A stretch of 49,792 nucleotides of DNA, from positions 1 to 49,792 of the forward strand of contig CASGHD010000116.1 of the NCBI GenBank assembly GCA_949319575.1, read 5' to 3'. The stretch comes from an uncultured Anaerolineales bacterium. GTDB taxonomy: Bacteria > Chloroflexota > Anaerolineae > Anaerolineales > Villigracilaceae. Within the stretch, counting starts at the first letter, position 1; every line of letters begins with the position of its first letter. The notes beneath the pieces were generated by a model that did no database searches, was not told the DNA's origin, and worked only from the letters and a program-made list of their open reading frames with translations. The position numbers were made by a program, and so were the translations under genes. Below are positions 28,412 to 42,367 of the stretch, one piece after another.

Positions 28412-31400
28412 ATGCAATCCATTCTCAATAACATCCGCTCCCTTCCTCAATATCAAAATCTTCTAACCCAACTCAAAGCGGGCAAACAAATCGCTGGGCT
28501 GGGACTTCCTCGCGCCGCGCGGTTGCCTGTCCTTGCGGCGTTGCTCGAAGATATTGCCCAGCCGATTCTCTTCATCACCGACCGCGCCGACCATGCGTTG
28601 TCTTTGTTCGATGAATTGGGATTTTGGGTCAAATCGCCGCGCTATCATTTTGCGGAACCGAATCCGCTGTTCTACGAACAAGCCGCGTGGGGCGTGACCA
28701 CCCGCCGCGACCGTTTGCAGACTCTAACGACACTTTCCACTTTCCACTTACCATTTGCATCCAAACCCGAAACGCCTCCAGTTATCATCACCTCCGTCCG
28801 TTCGCTGATGACGCGCACCATGCCGCGACGCGACTTCCTCAAGGCGTGCAAAAAATTATCCGTCAACCAATCCATTCAACCTGATACCCTCTTGCGAAGT
28901 TGGGCAGAGATCGGCTATCAGCGTGTCAACACCGTGCTGGAGCCTGGACAATTCTCCAGCAGGGGAGGGATTCTCGACATCTGGGCAACCGCCGAAACGA
29001 TGCCTGTCCGCTTGGATTTCTTCGGCGATGAGATCGAAACGATTCGCAAGTTTGATCCCGCTTCACAACGCACCATCGAAAAACTAGAATCTATTCTCGT
29101 CACGCCTGCGCGGGAATATCTCCACGCTCACGATCCGTCCGCAGTTCAACTGCTGACGGAACAAGAGAACGAAGAACAATCCGCAGTTGAACTGCGGATT
29201 GAGCAAGGCGTGGAATTATCCGAATTCCACATTCCATTACTTCACAAACAACCTGCGACGTTGCTCGATTACCTCTCGCAAAAAGCAATCGTATTGATTG
29301 ACGATATTTCAATCATCGAATCCATGGCGGAGGAGATTGAGGCGCAGGCGGTCAAGTTTAGGCAAGAGAGTATCGCGGAAGAAACGTTGTCAGCTGACTT
29401 TCCGTTGCCATACATCCCTTGGTCTGAGTTGAATGACAACATTCAATCAAGTGCGTCGTTGGAATTTGGATATTCAGGCAGTGACCAGTTATCAGTGACC
29501 AGTGAACAGTCGTTGAGTAGTTGCTTTGGGCATGATGAAAGGTTTGGAGGGAGATTAAAGCAATTCGTTGAGTATGTTGCAGGATTAGTGTCGAAAAAAG
29601 AATCCGTCATCGTCGTGTCGCGCCAAGCCAAAAGGTTGGAAGAACTTTGGCTGGAACATCAGGACCAAAAACCATTGACGATAGACGATGTGGACAGCAT
29701 GGTCAACCGTCCATTGTCAATGGTCGAATTCATCGAGTCCTCTTTATCCGAAGGATTCACCCTCAATCTCCAGTCTCCAGTCTCCAATCTCCAGTCTCCA
29801 ATTCTCCAATTCTCCAATTCTCTTCACTTAATCACTGATTCCGAAATCTTCGGCTGGGAACGCCCGCAACCCCGCGCGCGCCAGCGACCTGTTGCCGAAA
29901 CGCCTGAATCGGTGTATGCGGATTTGAACGTGGGCGATTATGTCGTGCATATTGATCACGGCGTCGGGCGGTTTGGCGGATTGGTGACGCGCGAGTTGGA
30001 CAATCACGCGCGCGAATTTCTCGCGGTGGAATATGACGGCGGCGGACAGTTGTATGTGCCTGTGCATCAAGCGGATCGGTTGACGCGTTATGTGGGCGCG
30101 GAGGGCGCGGCGCCCGCGCTGGATCGTTTGGGCGGGCAGGAGTGGCACGAGAAGAAGGGTCGCGTCAAAGCCGCTGTGTTGGAAGTGGCGCAAGATATGT
30201 TGGATTTGTATGCGCGGCGAAATGTTGCGTTGGGATATTCTTTCAAACCCGACACCGCGTGGCAAAAAGAATTGGAAGATTCATTTCCGTATGTGGAAAC
30301 GGAAGATCAACTGCGCGCACTAAATGATATTAAGCGCGACATGGAATCATCGCGCCCGATGGATCGTTTGTTGTGCGGCGACGTGGGCTATGGAAAAACA
30401 GAAGTGGCGTTGCGCGCCGCGTTCAAAGCTGTGATGGACGGAAAACAAGTTGCGATACTTGTGCCAACAACGGTATTGGCGCAACAACATTACGAAACAT
30501 TTTTGCAACGACTCGCCGCATTCCCTGTAAAAGTGGAAATGCTTTCGCGGTTTAGAACTCCGCGCGAACAAACAACAATTTTGCACGGACTTGCCATCGG
30601 CGAAATTGATATCGTCATCGGCACGCATCGTTTGATCTCTGGCGATGTGCAATTTAAAGAACTCGGCTTGGTCGTCATTGACGAAGAACAGCGCTTCGGC
30701 GTCACGCACAAGGAGCATCTCAAAAAACTTCGCACCGAAGTGGACGTGTTGACTCTCACTGCCACGCCGATTCCGCGCACGTTGTACATGGCGCTCACGG
30801 GCGTGCGCGATATTTCCAATCTCAACACGCCGCCCGAGGAACGATTGCCCATCGTCACGCATGTCGGCCCGTATTCACCGAAACTTGTGCGTCAGGCAAT
30901 CTTGCGCGAACTCGAACGCGGCGGACAAATTTTCTTCGTGCATAACCGTGTCCAAACCATTGACGCGATGCGCGCGCATCTCCATCAACTCGTCCCCGAA
31001 GCGAACGTGGATATCGGTCACGGGCAGATGCCAGAGAATCAACTCTCCGAAGTGATGCACCGCTTCAACAACGGCGACACAGATATTTTGCTGTCAACCA
31101 CAATCATTGAATCTGGATTGGACATCCCCAACGCGAACACCCTCATCGTGGATCGCGCCGACACCTTCGGCTTGGCTCAACTCTATCAACTACGCGGTCG
31201 CGTCGGACGTGGGGCTGCGCGCGCCTACTCCTACTTTTTTCGCCACAACAAGCTGACTCCCACAGTGGACGGTCAACAGCGACTCGAAGTCATCGCCGAA
31301 AACACGCAACTCGGCGCGGGCTATTCGATCGCGATGCGCGACCTTGAGATCCGCGGCGCAGGCGACCTGCTCGGCACGCGGCAATCAGGTCATATTCAAG

Positions 31401-31945
31401 CCGTTGGATTTCATTTGTATACGCGGTTGCTGGCAGATGCCGTCCGACGTTTAAGGTTGGCAGGTTCAATGTTGAACGTCGAAAGCCTCGCCGCTCAACC
31501 TTCCAACCTTCAAACCTTCAACCTTCAACCGATGTCCATGCCTGTGAACGTAGATTTACCCCTCGCCGTCGGAATCCCCGCTGAATACATCCCCGATCAA
31601 GATTTGCGTTTGCGGTTGTATCGCCGCATCGCGGACTTGCGCGATGAAACCGAAATTGACGCGCTGGCATCCGAGTTCAAAGATCGCTTCGGTGAATTAC
31701 CCGAAATGACCGCGAATCTGTTTTATCAGATGCGAGTCAAGTTGAAGGCAGAGAAGGCGGGACTATCGTCCATCAACTGGGAGAGCGGACAGATCGTGTT
31801 GAAATATCCCGCGTCGGCAAATGGAAATGAGTCCAAGCGGTTGGCAGATTTGGGCGCGGGCATCCGCGGCGGCAAGTCCGCGTATTGGTGTTCGTTTGGG
31901 GAGAAGTGGGAGGGGAGGTTGTTGGAGGTGTTGGGGAAACTTTAA
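28412..31945 (+). CDS. mfd: Transcription-repair coupling factor
   Basis: A 1177-residue SF2 translocase that removes stalled RNA polymerase and recruits UvrA. In order, it has a UvrB-like N-terminal region (RGGILDIW near residue 190), the RNA polymerase interaction domain (YADLNVGDYVVHIDHGVGRF near 500), the helicase core (LLCGDVGYGKTEVALRAAF near 653, VVIDEEQRFG, LTATPIPRTL, LSTTIIESGLDIP, LRGRVGRG) and the C-terminal TRCF domain. Four segments look foreign (residues ~242-263, 356-367, 451-470, 1013-1040), because their DNA matches repeat families found between genes. Despite these inserts the frame is intact. Its last ~100 bp are duplicated beyond hicAB. Confidence 0.96.
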   Translation: MQSILNNIRSLPQYQNLLTQLKAGKQIAGLGLPRAARLPVLAALLEDIAQPILFITDRADHALSLFDELGFWVKSPRYHFAEPNPLFYEQAAWGVTTRRDRLQTLTTLSTFHLPFASKPETPPVIITSVRSLMTRTMPRRDFLKACKKLSVNQSIQPDTLLRSWAEIGYQRVNTVLEPGQFSSRGGILDIWATAETMPVRLDFFGDEIETIRKFDPASQRTIEKLESILVTPAREYLHAHDPSAVQLLTEQENEEQSAVELRIEQGVELSEFHIPLLHKQPATLLDYLSQKAIVLIDDISIIESMAEEIEAQAVKFRQESIAEETLSADFPLPYIPWSELNDNIQSSASLEFGYSGSDQLSVTSEQSLSSCFGHDERFGGRLKQFVEYVAGLVSKKESVIVVSRQAKRLEELWLEHQDQKPLTIDDVDSMVNRPLSMVEFIESSLSEGFTLNLQSPVSNLQSPILQFSNSLHLITDSEIFGWERPQPRARQRPVAETPESVYADLNVGDYVVHIDHGVGRFGGLVTRELDNHAREFLAVEYDGGGQLYVPVHQADRLTRYVGAEGAAPALDRLGGQEWHEKKGRVKAAVLEVAQDMLDLYARRNVALGYSFKPDTAWQKELEDSFPYVETEDQLRALNDIKRDMESSRPMDRLLCGDVGYGKTEVALRAAFKAVMDGKQVAILVPTTVLAQQHYETFLQRLAAFPVKVEMLSRFRTPREQTTILHGLAIGEIDIVIGTHRLISGDVQFKELGLVVIDEEQRFGVTHKEHLKKLRTEVDVLTLTATPIPRTLYMALTGVRDISNLNTPPEERLPIVTHVGPYSPKLVRQAILRELERGGQIFFVHNRVQTIDAMRAHLHQLVPEANVDIGHGQMPENQLSEVMHRFNNGDTDILLSTTIIESGLDIPNANTLIVDRADTFGLAQLYQLRGRVGRGAARAYSYFFRHNKLTPTVDGQQRLEVIAENTQLGAGYSIAMRDLEIRGAGDLLGTRQSGHIQAVGFHLYTRLLADAVRRLRLAGSMLNVESLAAQPSNLQTFNLQPMSMPVNVDLPLAVGIPAEYIPDQDLRLRLYRRIADLRDETEIDALASEFKDRFGELPEMTANLFYQMRVKLKAEKAGLSSINWESGQIVLKYPASANGNESKRLADLGAGIRGGKSAYWCSFGEKWEGRLLEVLGKL
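29137..29200 (+). repeat. In-frame palindromic element in mfd (CCGCAGTTnAACTGCGG)
   Basis: Two palindromes, GTCCGCAGTTCAACTGCTGAC and AATCCGCAGTTGAACTGCGGATT, flank an acidic linker. They encode residues ~242-263. The core CAGTTnAACTG resembles the palindromes at 7847-7890. Confidence 0.7.
29477..29511 (+). repeat. In-frame CAGTGACCAGTTATCAGTGA-type repeat in mfd
   Basis: The coding strand reads GGCAGTGACCAGTTATCAGTGACCAGTGAACAG, encoding Ser/Gln-rich residues ~356-367. It matches the intergenic repeats at 24629 and 38898. Confidence 0.65.
29764..29822 (+). repeat. In-frame CTCCAGTCTCCAAT repeat in mfd
   Basis: Tandem CTCCAGTCTCCAGTCTCCAATCTCC units encode NLQSPVSNLQSPILQFSNS (residues ~451-470), just before the RNA polymerase interaction domain. 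The same DNA forms the non-coding tract before pth. Confidence 0.75.
31448..31530 (+). repeat. In-frame AACCTTCAACC-type palindromic element in mfd
   Basis: GGTTGGCAGGTTCAATGTTGAACGTCGAAAGCC and CAACCTTCCAACCTTCAAACCTTCAACC form an inverted element encoding residues ~1013-1040. A close copy lies inside the leuS T-box leader (39274-39344). Confidence 0.75.
31843..31945 (+). repeat. Direct repeat, left copy (mfd 3' end)
   Basis: From GGCAGATTTGGGCGCGG to the stop codon, the end of mfd is repeated in direct orientation at 32697-32799 with roughly ten mismatches and a 1-nt gap. The pair brackets a palindromic repeat and the hicAB genes. Confidence 0.85.
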
Positions 31946-38885: not shown

Positions 38886-38897
38886 CTTTTCAGCGAC

Positions 38898-38950
38898 AAG
38901 TAATCAGTGAACAGTTATCAGTCTCTGATTACACTGATTACTGATTACTT
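38898..38950. repeat. AGTAATCAGTGAACAGT palindromic element between tRNA genes
   Basis: AAGTAATCAGT at the left is inverted as ACTGATTACTT at the right. Its CAGTGAACAGTTATCAGT core also occurs inside mfd. Confidence 0.7.
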
Positions 38951-38971
38951 TAAAAACTGATAACAGAAATT

Positions 38972-39044: not shown

Positions 39045-39056
39045 CAAATTAATATT

Positions 39057-39089
39057 AGACCTCACAGATTATCAAAACCTGTGAGGTCT
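39057..39089. repeat. Inverted repeat AGACCTCACAG ... CTGTGAGGTCT
   Basis: Eleven-bp arms around an A/T-rich loop, 12 bp after the tRNA and before the T-box leader. It may serve as the tRNA terminator or may be another dispersed palindrome. Confidence 0.65.
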
Positions 39090-39107
39090 GAAACAAAGGT
39101 TTTGACA

Positions 39108-39410
39108 GGAGTAGTAGGTCATCCCGTCAGCGAGTTGGGAATGCGAGGTGGAAGCCCAGCAACAGTGTTTACGGGAACACAGTAGACCGAACTCGCTTGT
39201 CGCCTCGCAAAGAGGGACTTCGCTGGTGAATCGAGTAGTCAGCGACGGGTTAGCCCGTTATAGCAATCAAAGAGCGTTTGAACGTTGGAAGGTTTGAATG
39301 TTGAAGGTGAAAGCCTGCAACTTATAACCTTCAAACCTTCAACCGAATTCGGGTGGTACCGCGGAGTGAACTCTTCGTCCCTGATGTGGATGAGGAGTTT
39401 TTTGTTTTGT
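39108..39410 (+). promoter_or_regulatory. T-box leader (leucine) controlling leuS
   Basis: Stem I has AGTAGGTC, AGCGAGTTGGG and the GGTGGAAGCCCA segment, and the specifier region reads GAA-CTC-GCT, so the codon read by tRNA is CTC (Leu), matching the downstream leucyl-tRNA synthetase. The T-box sequence GGGTGGTACCGCG lies at 39351-39363. A terminator stem CTCTTCGTCC/GGATGAGGAG with a T-tract follows (39371-39410). Uncharged tRNA-Leu should favour the antiterminator. A palindromic repeat has entered the linker between stem I/III and the antiterminator. Confidence 0.92.
39274..39344 (+). repeat. AACCTTCAACC-type palindromic element inside the T-box leader
   Basis: GTTGGAAGGTTTGAATGTTGAAGG pairs with CCTTCAAACCTTCAAC, and the loop carries AAAGCCT. 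It matches the in-frame element of mfd at 31448-31530. Confidence 0.8.
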
Positions 39411-39619
39411 ATTGGACGATGGACAATGGACGATAGACCATAGACAATGCCTTATCGCCCATCGTCAGCAGCCAATGGTCAAAAAGGAGGTAGGTATGAA
39501 CATTCGGATCAACTTTATTTTCTGGATGCAAGGTCCTCTTCTTCCGAATCTCCTCTCGCCTCAAGGGTCGAAAACCTGAAACCTGAAACCTGGAACTTGA
39601 AACTCATAAAGAGGTAAAA

Positions 39620-42367
39620 ATGGCTGCTACGAAAAAGAAAGTAACAACAAAAAAGAAAACCGCGCCGAAGGCTAAAAAGTCTATGCCTGCAAAAAGCAAG
39701 CGGACTAAAGTCCGCAATCCTGAATTTGGCGCGGTGAAAAAGAAAGCGACGAAGCCTGTATCGAAGGTGAAGAAGTCTGCGCCTGCGAAAAGAAAGCGGA
39801 CTGAAGCCCGCGCTCCTGAATCGAGAGACAAATCTTTCAACCCGCAGATCTTTGAGCCGAAGTGGCAGGCGAAGTGGGAAGCGGATAATTTGTATCGCGC
39901 GGTGATTGATGAGAGCAGACCAAAGCATTACGCGCTGACGATGTTGCCGTACCCGAGCGGCGACTTGCACATCGGTCATTGGTATGCGATGACGCCGTCG
40001 GATGCGCGGGCGCGGTTCAAGCGGATGCAGGGCTATAACGTGATGTTCCCGATGGGATTCGACGCGTTCGGTCTGCCTGCGGAGGGCGCGGCGATCAAGA
40101 ACAACATCCACCCGAAAAAGTGGACGTATGCCAACATCGAGCGGATGCGCGCGCAGATGCGTTCGATGGGCGCGATGTTCGATTGGGAACGGGAGGCGGT
40201 TTCGTCTGACCCTGAATACTATAGATGGACGGAGTGGTTCTTCATCCAGCTGTACAAACACGGCTTGGCATATCGCAAGAAGCAAGCCGTGGATTGGTGT
40301 CCCAAGGACAACACGACTCTGGCGCGTGAACAAGTGAAGGGCGAGGATCGAGTCTGTGACCGTTGCGGAACGCCTGTGATCAAAAAAGAGTTGGAGCAGT
40401 GGTTTTTTAAGGCAACGAAATACGCGGATGAGTTGCTGAGCTTCGAAAGCATTGACTGGCCCGAACACATCAAGACTTCGCAGACGAATTGGATTGGGCG
40501 AAGTGAAGGAGCGTCGGTCACTTTCAAAACTGAAGCAGGCGACCCGATTGAGATTTTTACAACCCGTCCCGATACGTTGTGGGGCGCGACGTTCATGGTC
40601 TTCTCGCCTGAGCATCCGCTGGTGGATAAAGTTACCACGCCCGAACATGCGAAAGCCGTCAGCGAGTATAAGGCTCAGGCGGCGAAACAGACCGACATCC
40701 AGCGCGAGGCGAAAGATAAAGAGAAGACGGGAGTCTTCACAGGCGGCTATGCCATCAATCCAGTGAATGAGGAGCGCATCCCCATCTGGGTCGCGGATTA
40801 TGTGTTGATGTCATACGGCACGGGCGCGATCATGGCTGTGCCCGCGCATGATGAACGTGACTTTGAATTTGCGCGCAAGTTTGGATTGAAGGTCCTGCCC
40901 GTCATCCAACCGACCCCCCTCCATCTCCCCCCAAATTCTCCGAATTTGGGGGGAGAGAAAGAGGGGGGTGGCGACACAATGGAAACGGCGTATGAACACG
41001 AAGGCGTGATGATTAACTCAGGTCCGTTCAACGGCACGCGCGCGACGAACGATAAAGGGATGAAGAATCCCGCGATCAAAGCGGTGATCGAATGGCTGGA
41101 GCAAAAGGGAATCGGCAAGCGCGATGTGAATTATCGCTATCGCGATTGGTTGATCTCGCGCCAGCGTTTTTGGGGCGCGCCCATTCCGATGGTGTATTGC
41201 GAAACGCATGGATGGAATCCTGTGCCTGACGATCAACTGCCTGTGTTGTTGCCCGACGACATTGACGAGTGGAAGCCGACGGGCGAATCGCCGTTGAAGT
41301 TTCATCCGACGTGGAAAGATACCACTTGCCCTGTGTGCGGTGAATACGCCGCGCGCGAAACGGATACGATGGATACGTTCATGTGTTCGTCGTGGTATCA
41401 CTTGCGTTATCTGAGTCCGAAAAATGATAACGCGCCGTTCGATGATTCCGAATACAACTATTGGATGCCCGTTGATACGTATACAGGCGGAAGCGAACAC
41501 GCCAACATGCACTTGCTATACTTCCGCTTTTTCCACAAGGCGTTGCGCGACATGGGTATCACCGAAGGTGGCGAGCCTGTAATGCAATTGCGTAATCAAG
41601 GCATGGTGCTGGCGGAAGATAACAGCAAGATGTCGAAGAGCAAAGGCAATGTCGTCGCGCCCGATGTGTTGGTGAAAAAATATGGCGCCGATACCGTCCG
41701 CGCATATTTGATGTTCTTCGCGCGCTGGCAACAAGGCGCGGCATGGGATTCGCACGGCATCGAAGGAACTGCAAGATGGATGCGGAGGGTGTGGACTCTG
41801 TTTACGGATGAGGGTAGGGGCGAGCCGTCAAGCGGGATGAACGCCTCAACCTCAACCATGGCGGCTCGCCCCTACGATGGGCGTCATCTGCGCCGACGCG
41901 TCCACCAAACGTTGAAGCGCGTCACTCACGACTTCGAGAACTTCGAATTCAACACGATCATCTCATCGTTGATGGAGTTGTTGAATGAAATGTACAAGGC
42001 GCGCGAGGCGGGCGCGGTCGGTTCACCCGAATGGGATGAAGCGACTGAAATCTACGTGAAGATGATGGCTCCCGTCGCGCCGCATGTCGCCGAAGAATTG
42101 TGGACGAATCACTTGGGCAAGCCGTATTCCATCCACCAGCAGATGTGGCCCCAAGTGGACGAAGCCGCCGCGCGCGAAGACTCGATTGAAATCCCCGTGC
42201 AGGTCAACGGCAAAGTGCGAGACAGAATCACCGTCGCGGTAGACGCGAGCGAGGATGAAATCCGCACAGCCGCGCTTGCAAGTGAGATCGTCCAGAAATA
42301 TTTGGAGGGCAAAGAGCCGCGCAAGGTCATCGTGGCTCATGGGAAGTTGGTGAGCGTGGTGGTGTAA
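39620..42367 (+). CDS. leuS: Leucyl-tRNA synthetase with lysine-rich N-terminal extension
   Basis: A 915-residue class I synthetase. The enzyme proper begins near residue 73 (NPQIFEPKWQAKWE) and has the HIGH motif (GDLHIGHWYAM), zinc-like CPVCGEYAARETDTMDTFMCSSWY, the KMSKS loop (KMSKSKGNVV), and the C-terminal anticodon-binding helices. The first ~70 residues are a Lys/Ala-rich tail with a duplicated 41-nt unit. Further inserts lie at residues ~432-450, between VIQP and AYEHEGVMINSG of the editing region, and ~732-752, before the anticodon-binding domain; both are encoded by perfect DNA palindromes. Active-site motifs are intact, so it should work. AGAGG precedes the ATG. Control is by the T-box leader upstream. 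Confidence 0.97.
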   Translation: MAATKKKVTTKKKTAPKAKKSMPAKSKRTKVRNPEFGAVKKKATKPVSKVKKSAPAKRKRTEARAPESRDKSFNPQIFEPKWQAKWEADNLYRAVIDESRPKHYALTMLPYPSGDLHIGHWYAMTPSDARARFKRMQGYNVMFPMGFDAFGLPAEGAAIKNNIHPKKWTYANIERMRAQMRSMGAMFDWEREAVSSDPEYYRWTEWFFIQLYKHGLAYRKKQAVDWCPKDNTTLAREQVKGEDRVCDRCGTPVIKKELEQWFFKATKYADELLSFESIDWPEHIKTSQTNWIGRSEGASVTFKTEAGDPIEIFTTRPDTLWGATFMVFSPEHPLVDKVTTPEHAKAVSEYKAQAAKQTDIQREAKDKEKTGVFTGGYAINPVNEERIPIWVADYVLMSYGTGAIMAVPAHDERDFEFARKFGLKVLPVIQPTPLHLPPNSPNLGGEKEGGGDTMETAYEHEGVMINSGPFNGTRATNDKGMKNPAIKAVIEWLEQKGIGKRDVNYRYRDWLISRQRFWGAPIPMVYCETHGWNPVPDDQLPVLLPDDIDEWKPTGESPLKFHPTWKDTTCPVCGEYAARETDTMDTFMCSSWYHLRYLSPKNDNAPFDDSEYNYWMPVDTYTGGSEHANMHLLYFRFFHKALRDMGITEGGEPVMQLRNQGMVLAEDNSKMSKSKGNVVAPDVLVKKYGADTVRAYLMFFARWQQGAAWDSHGIEGTARWMRRVWTLFTDEGRGEPSSGMNASTSTMAARPYDGRHLRRRVHQTLKRVTHDFENFEFNTIISSLMELLNEMYKAREAGAVGSPEWDEATEIYVKMMAPVAPHVAEELWTNHLGKPYSIHQQMWPQVDEAAAREDSIEIPVQVNGKVRDRITVAVDASEDEIRTAALASEIVQKYLEGKEPRKVIVAHGKLVSVVV
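39685..39821 (+). repeat. Duplicated 41-nt unit with GCGGACTAAAGTCCGC palindrome in the leuS 5' end
   Basis: The unit GCCTGCAAAAAGCAAGCGGACTAAAGTCCGCAATCCTGAAT (39685-39725) recurs at 39781-39821 with GCGGACTGAAGCCCGC in place of the perfect palindrome. Both are in frame. Confidence 0.8.
40914..40968 (+). repeat. In-frame palindromic insert in leuS (CTCCCCCCAAATTC)
   Basis: Outer arms CCCCCCTC/GAGGGGGG and inner arms CTCCCCCCAAATTC/GAATTTGGGGGGAG make an almost complete palindrome. It encodes Pro-rich then Gly/Glu-rich residues in the editing region. Confidence 0.8.
41814..41875 (+). repeat. In-frame palindromic insert in leuS (GTAGGGGCGAGCCG)
   Basis: GTAGGGGCGAGCCG at the left is exactly inverted as CGGCTCGCCCCTAC at the right, with a Ser/Thr-coding loop. 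Confidence 0.82.

What the first reader, a model, noticed from the sequence alone, without database searches (positions are those of the whole stretch)
39108..39410. A mobile-looking palindrome sits inside a leucine T-box riboswitch
Seen: a T-box leader with specifier CTC, the T-box core GGGTGGTACCGCG and a terminator lies upstream of leuS. Between stem I/III and the antiterminator there is a 71-nt palindrome (39274-39344) matching the in-frame element in mfd. Inference: the same element family can enter both proteins and regulatory RNA, and the linker tolerates a stable extra hairpin.
Basis: partly seen in the sequence, partly recalled or inferred. Interest (0 to 1): 0.75.

Follow-up and report, generated by a model that had tools for sequence, protein, structure and literature searches.

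The report
Repeat palindrome serving as riboswitch helix
In this Chloroflexota bacterium the helix just before the switching part of a tRNA-sensing RNA (a T-box, upstream of leuS) is built from a palindrome family scattered through the genome, and related species have swapped unrelated palindromes into the same slot while keeping the functional bases on either side.

Summary
The T-box leader and the 71-nt palindrome are real, but the palindrome is not an extra hairpin in a linker. It is the T-box's own Stem III. [quoted passage not shown] All 29 leuS leaders compared keep that motif. The palindrome does belong to a dispersed family: an in-frame copy in mfd and about a dozen full or half copies elsewhere in the genome. 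It is not a recent hit in this genome. The same GTTGAA cassette is Stem III in 19 T-boxes (leuS and valS) across 17 of 152 family genomes and three genera. In other species the slot holds unrelated palindromes or a plain 16-26 nt stem. The sister species G001 and G007 have nearly identical leaders, but Stem III is a 26-nt stem in one and a ~148-nt octamer palindrome in the other; the octamer family is spread through G007's genome. The thrS and serS T-boxes of this genome likewise carry other dispersed palindromes as Stem III. Best reading: Stem III is an exchangeable slot that repeatedly takes up dispersed palindromes. Precedents exist in other RNAs; I found none for a riboswitch.

The parts
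39093..39405 (+). leucine T-box leader (transcription-attenuation type) upstream of leuS
   Evidence: RF00230 full-model match 39093-39385; core, antiterminator and terminator
39192..39194 (+). likely specifier codon CTC (Leu)
   Evidence: read directly from the sequence, context GAACTCGC on the 3' side of Stem I; agrees with the leuS gene downstream
39244..39260 (+). Stem IIA/B pseudoknot region (GACGGG...CCCGTTA)
   Evidence: Rfam alignment; CCGTTA present in 29 of 30 leuS loci
39270..39274 (+). 5' half of the RRRxG-StemIII-AA motif (AAGAG)
   Evidence: motif published in PMC7583486; found in 29 of 29 leuS leaders
39275..39345 (+). Stem III, formed by the 71-nt GTTGAA-type palindrome
   Evidence: Rfam position; fold z -5.1; dispersed relatives; same cassette in 17 genomes
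39346..39347 (+). 3' half of the motif (AA)
39351..39381 (+). T-box core GGGTGGTACCGCG and antiterminator
39368..39404 (+). intrinsic terminator competing with the antiterminator
   Evidence: fold -18.5 kcal/mol followed by a T run
31448..31523 (+). in-frame copy of the same palindrome family in mfd
   Evidence: 78% identity, E 7e-8 genome-wide; linker shorter in order-level relatives
39056..39092 (+). intergenic copy of a second family (AGACCTCACAG...CTGTGAGGTCT), the family that forms Stem III of this genome's thrS T-box
40914..40969 (+). in-frame CCCCCCTCC palindrome inside leuS, resembling Stem III of this genome's serS T-box
   Evidence: insert absent from most relatives

Best explanation
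The palindrome is Stem III of a leucine T-box riboswitch. Stem III is part of the discriminator that senses whether the tRNA 3' end is charged, but the conserved contacts lie in its flanking purines, so almost any stable hairpin should serve there. In this lineage (Candidatus Villigracilaceae-like Anaerolineales) genomes carry many short palindrome families. These families have repeatedly replaced or extended Stem III in several T-boxes without disturbing the RRRxG and AA flanks. In leuS a GTTGAA cassette is shared by members of three genera and has been kept as Stem III, and lost or swapped in some species. Shown: the position as Stem III, retention of the flanks, dispersal of the family, exchange between species. 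Inferred: that the direction is genome to T-box, that the riboswitch still works with these cassettes, and the means of transfer (transposition, template switching or recombination).
For: Rfam places it at Stem III. The published motif 5'-RRRxG-Stem III-AA-3' (PMC7583486) brackets it and is kept in 29 of 29 leuS leaders. Dispersal in its own genome: about 12 other places for the leuS cassette and 26 for the thrS Stem III, against four marginal 21-26 nt hits for 1049 nt of Stem I-IIA/B from the same six leaders. Sister species G001 and G007: 5' leader 96% identical, Stem III region 23% identical and 44 versus 166 nt; G007's stem recurs on at least 23 other contigs of that genome. Same cassette in 17 genomes of three genera, in leuS and valS.
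Against: The leuS cassette's dispersed relatives are diverged (72-90%) and many match only one arm, so low complexity inflates the count. The long stems of G016 and G006 show no clear dispersed copies in their own genomes. No compensatory changes above shuffles, so selection on pairing is not proven. No target-site duplication or transposase is tied to the family, and mobility has not been observed.
Confidence: 0.8

Rival explanations
1. Stem III grew in place. A short ancestral stem (CGTTTG...CAAACG) lengthened by replication slippage or hairpin-templated duplication of heptad units; the copies elsewhere are look-alikes or came from the T-box.
For: Short versions with the same base pairs exist (CGTTTGTTTATTCAAACG in L192; CGTTTGCTTATCAAACG in G121), and G166 has a symmetrically shortened form.
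Against: Unrelated families fill the same slot in thrS, serS and in G007, multi-copy in their own genomes. The mfd copy matches across both arms and the centre.
Confidence: 0.15
2. Cassettes spread mainly by recombination between T-box leaders, not from dispersed repeats.
For: In G015 the leuS and valS leaders resemble each other from CCCGTTA through the antiterminator but not upstream. trpE and trpB leaders also share sequence.
Against: Does not explain Stem IIIs such as the thrS 33-mer with 26 copies elsewhere or the G007 octamer.
Confidence: 0.2
3. One reading: a mobile palindrome recently inserted into a permissive linker as an extra hairpin beside an intact Stem III.
For: Family match to mfd.
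Against: No other hairpin remains between Stem IIA/B and the T-box core. The flanks are the Stem III motif, and the cassette is shared by 17 genomes.
Confidence: 0.03

Closest known systems
T-box riboswitch discriminator, Stem III (RF00230; Li et al. 2019 as reviewed in PMC7583486)
   Same: same position, flanking RRRxG/AA motif, downstream T-box core, antiterminator and terminator
   Different: Stem III is known to be variable, but here its sequence belongs to dispersed genomic palindrome families and is exchanged between unrelated families
Rickettsia palindromic elements (RPEs; PMC2229807)
   Same: palindromes found intergenically, in-frame in proteins, and in two RNA genes (tmRNA and M1 RNA)
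   Different: RPEs are 105-146 bp families; here the element is shorter, heptad-based, and forms an integral named helix of a riboswitch. No sequence relationship tested
Heptanucleotide-repeat P6b stem of the Nostoc trnL intron (PMC4476775), and STRR sequences in cyanobacterial RNase P RNA (title only, cited in PMC2858038)
   Same: a peripheral helix of a structured RNA built of heptad repeats, with shifts between unrelated repeat classes
   Different: self-splicing intron or ribozyme rather than riboswitch; two repeat classes rather than many; other phylum

Membership tests
T-box riboswitch (RF00230) | match to the covariance model over its full length | tested here: met
   56.7 bits, model 1-219, E 7e-12, though below the gathering score of 93; other T-boxes of the same genome exceed it
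T-box riboswitch (RF00230) | T-box core with antiterminator/terminator alternative upstream of an amino-acid-related gene | tested here: met
   GGGTGGTACCGCG 39351-39363, terminator 39368-39404, leuS at 39620
T-box riboswitch (RF00230) | regulation by uncharged tRNA-Leu | not testable with these tools
   needs transcription-termination assays
Stem III of the T-box discriminator | hairpin flanked by 5'-RRRxG and AA-3' just before the antiterminator | tested here: met
   AAGAG-hairpin-AA at 39270-39347; 29 of 29 leuS leaders
Stem III of the T-box discriminator | base pairing maintained by selection (covariation) | tested here: inconclusive
   95% of cells paired in 18 sequences, but changes on both sides no more than in shuffles
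Dispersed palindromic repeat (MITE/RPE/STRR-like) | multiple copies at unrelated places in the genome, in genes and between genes | tested here: met
   about 12 other places incl. mfd, many partial
Dispersed palindromic repeat (MITE/RPE/STRR-like) | precise presence/absence at orthologous sites | tested here: met
   Stem III slot swapped between sisters G001/G007; the LeuS loop insert (a different palindrome) is absent from most relatives
Dispersed palindromic repeat (MITE/RPE/STRR-like) | target-site duplication or partner transposase | not tested
   six Y1 transposase (RAYT-type) matches are present but not linked to this family

The most novel reading that the evidence does not exclude
In this bacterial family, Stem III of T-box riboswitches is a general docking slot that keeps recruiting dispersed genomic palindromes, so a regulatory RNA is being rebuilt from selfish or low-complexity DNA, perhaps with effects on switching.
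Probability: 0.4. Interest if true: 0.72.

Novelty: new variant of a known kind. Interest (0 to 1): 0.56.

Why it matters
It shows how a functional RNA helix can be handed over to repeat DNA: the part that must only be a hairpin is freely exchangeable, while the few bases that touch tRNA stay fixed. It supplies many natural swap experiments for testing what Stem III contributes to T-box switching, and a clean system for asking how bacterial palindromes spread.

Tried and rejected
Default Rfam scan misses the T-box. Plasmid collection: no match. Covariation on 8 and then 18 sequences gave no signal beyond shuffles, so compensatory evolution is not claimed. Attributing spread to RAYT transposases: matches present, no link found. 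LeuS tree: many weak forks and genera not monophyletic, so no count of gains and losses is claimed. Distant loci L200 onward mostly lacked a recognisable leader in the flank. Papers searched for a T-box/Chloroflexi/Stem III precedent: none held; Vioque 1997 is not in the library.

Full report
OBSERVATION. The window holds a leucine T-box leader at 39093-39405 upstream of leuS (39620-42367). Rfam's T-box model aligns end to end (56.7 bits, E 7e-12). The score is below the family's gathering cut-off, so the default scan is silent; the long hairpin probably costs score. The palindrome 39275-39345 is far more stable than shuffles (-25.4 kcal/mol, z -5.1, 0 of 200), and its best match elsewhere in the genome is inside mfd (31448-31523, 78%, E 7e-8 genome-wide), where the reading frame stays open.

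WHERE IT SITS. In the Rfam alignment the hairpin lies at the Stem III position, directly before the antiterminator, and CGACGGGTTAGCCCGTTA upstream is the Stem IIA/B region. [quoted passage not shown] Here the hairpin is bracketed exactly by AAGAG (39270-39274) and AA (39346-39347). All 29 leuS leaders with an identifiable core from the window and its relatives keep both sides. RRRxG alone is loose enough to occur by chance in purine-rich DNA; what counts is its place just before the helix.

WHAT FILLS THE SLOT IN RELATIVES. Of 30 leuS loci, 29 gave a Stem III region of 35-166 nt. Several share the GTTGAA cassette of the window; others hold a GACGTT cassette, octamer repeats (GATAGTCT, GTTAGATA), other palindromes, or a plain stem. 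The clearest case is G001 against G007, sisters in the LeuS tree (100/92): the 5' part of the leader is 96% identical, the part 3' of the slot nearly identical, and Stem III is a 26-nt plain stem in one and a ~148-nt octamer palindrome in the other. A pattern search of 152 family genomes found the GTTGAA cassette in a T-box in 17 genomes of three genera, 19 T-boxes in all, with none for the reversed pattern; two of these were identified as valS by their downstream protein group and a third (G011) by its sequence. Nearly all fold as full-length hairpins; one is symmetrically shortened and one takes a partly different fold. So the cassette is shared and retained, not a recent accident of this genome.

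IS IT REPEAT DNA? The leuS cassette has about 12 other places in its genome at E up to about 0.01, five covering 50 nt or more and the rest one arm. Several lie in open frames of genes (Mfd, chorismate-synthase-like, E2-acyltransferase-like). Stem III of the thrS T-box (a 33-nt palindrome, GAGACCTCACAGG...) has 26 other places at 83-100% identity; serS has 2, trpE-leader sequence 3, ileS and pheS none. As a control, 1049 nt of Stem I to IIA/B of the same six leaders gave only four marginal hits of 21-26 nt. In G007 the leuS stem recurs on at least 23 other contigs; plain stems of G001 and G013 match only themselves in their own genomes; the long stems of G016 and G006 show no strong dispersed copies, so the rule is not universal.

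MECHANISM. Shown: position, flank conservation, exchange, dispersal. Inferred: because the conserved contacts reside in the flanking purines, any hairpin satisfies Stem III, so palindromes landing there are tolerated or even recruited. The transfer step is unknown. In G015, leuS and valS leaders are alike from CCCGTTA through the antiterminator and unlike upstream, which points to exchange between T-boxes as one route. Short stems with the same base (L192, G121) leave room for growth or shrinkage in place. Covariation is not informative: 95% of cells pair, but changes on both sides do not exceed shuffles.

KNOWN RELATIVES. Rickettsia palindromic elements enter proteins and two RNA genes, tmRNA and M1 RNA (PMC2229807). 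The P6b stem of the Nostoc trnL intron is built from one of two heptad classes with repeated class shifts (PMC4476775). STRR sequences in cyanobacterial RNase P RNA are a similar case known here only from a title. I found no report of this in a riboswitch, in a library that lacks most subscription journals. The finding is therefore a new variant of a known kind.

TAXON. Named relatives include a Candidatus Villigracilaceae bacterium (LeuS 86%); the family assignment of the window is inferred from that. The genome is in 227 contigs, but the leader is conserved across many assemblies, so misassembly is unlikely.

Noticed in passing
L028 (trpE leader), also L156, L161, L167, L172 and trpB leader L143: trp T-box leaders of the genus carry an extra terminator-like hairpin with a T run (e.g. 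CCTGTGTGCATCACGCAGGAATTTTTTG) between Stem IIA/B and the T-box core. Purpose unexplained.
   Followed up: no
window 28412-31945: Mfd holds at least two further low-complexity in-frame stretches (YSGSDQLSVTSEQSLSS and LNLQSPVSNLQSPILQFSN) that look like other repeat families.
   Followed up: no
window 40914-40969 and L032-L060: The same LeuS loop has taken different in-frame proline-rich inserts in different species and is empty in most.
   Followed up: partly
window 38887-38960 and 39411-39470: Other short-unit repeats (CAGTGAACAGTTATCAG type and GGACGATGGACAATGG type) flank the tRNA-Ala genes and the T-box.
   Followed up: no
leuS leaders L036, L037, L038, L042, L045: Palindrome-like CCTGAGC...GTCGAAGG inserts also appear in the Stem II region, and in one case (L045) inside the antiterminator.
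   Followed up: no
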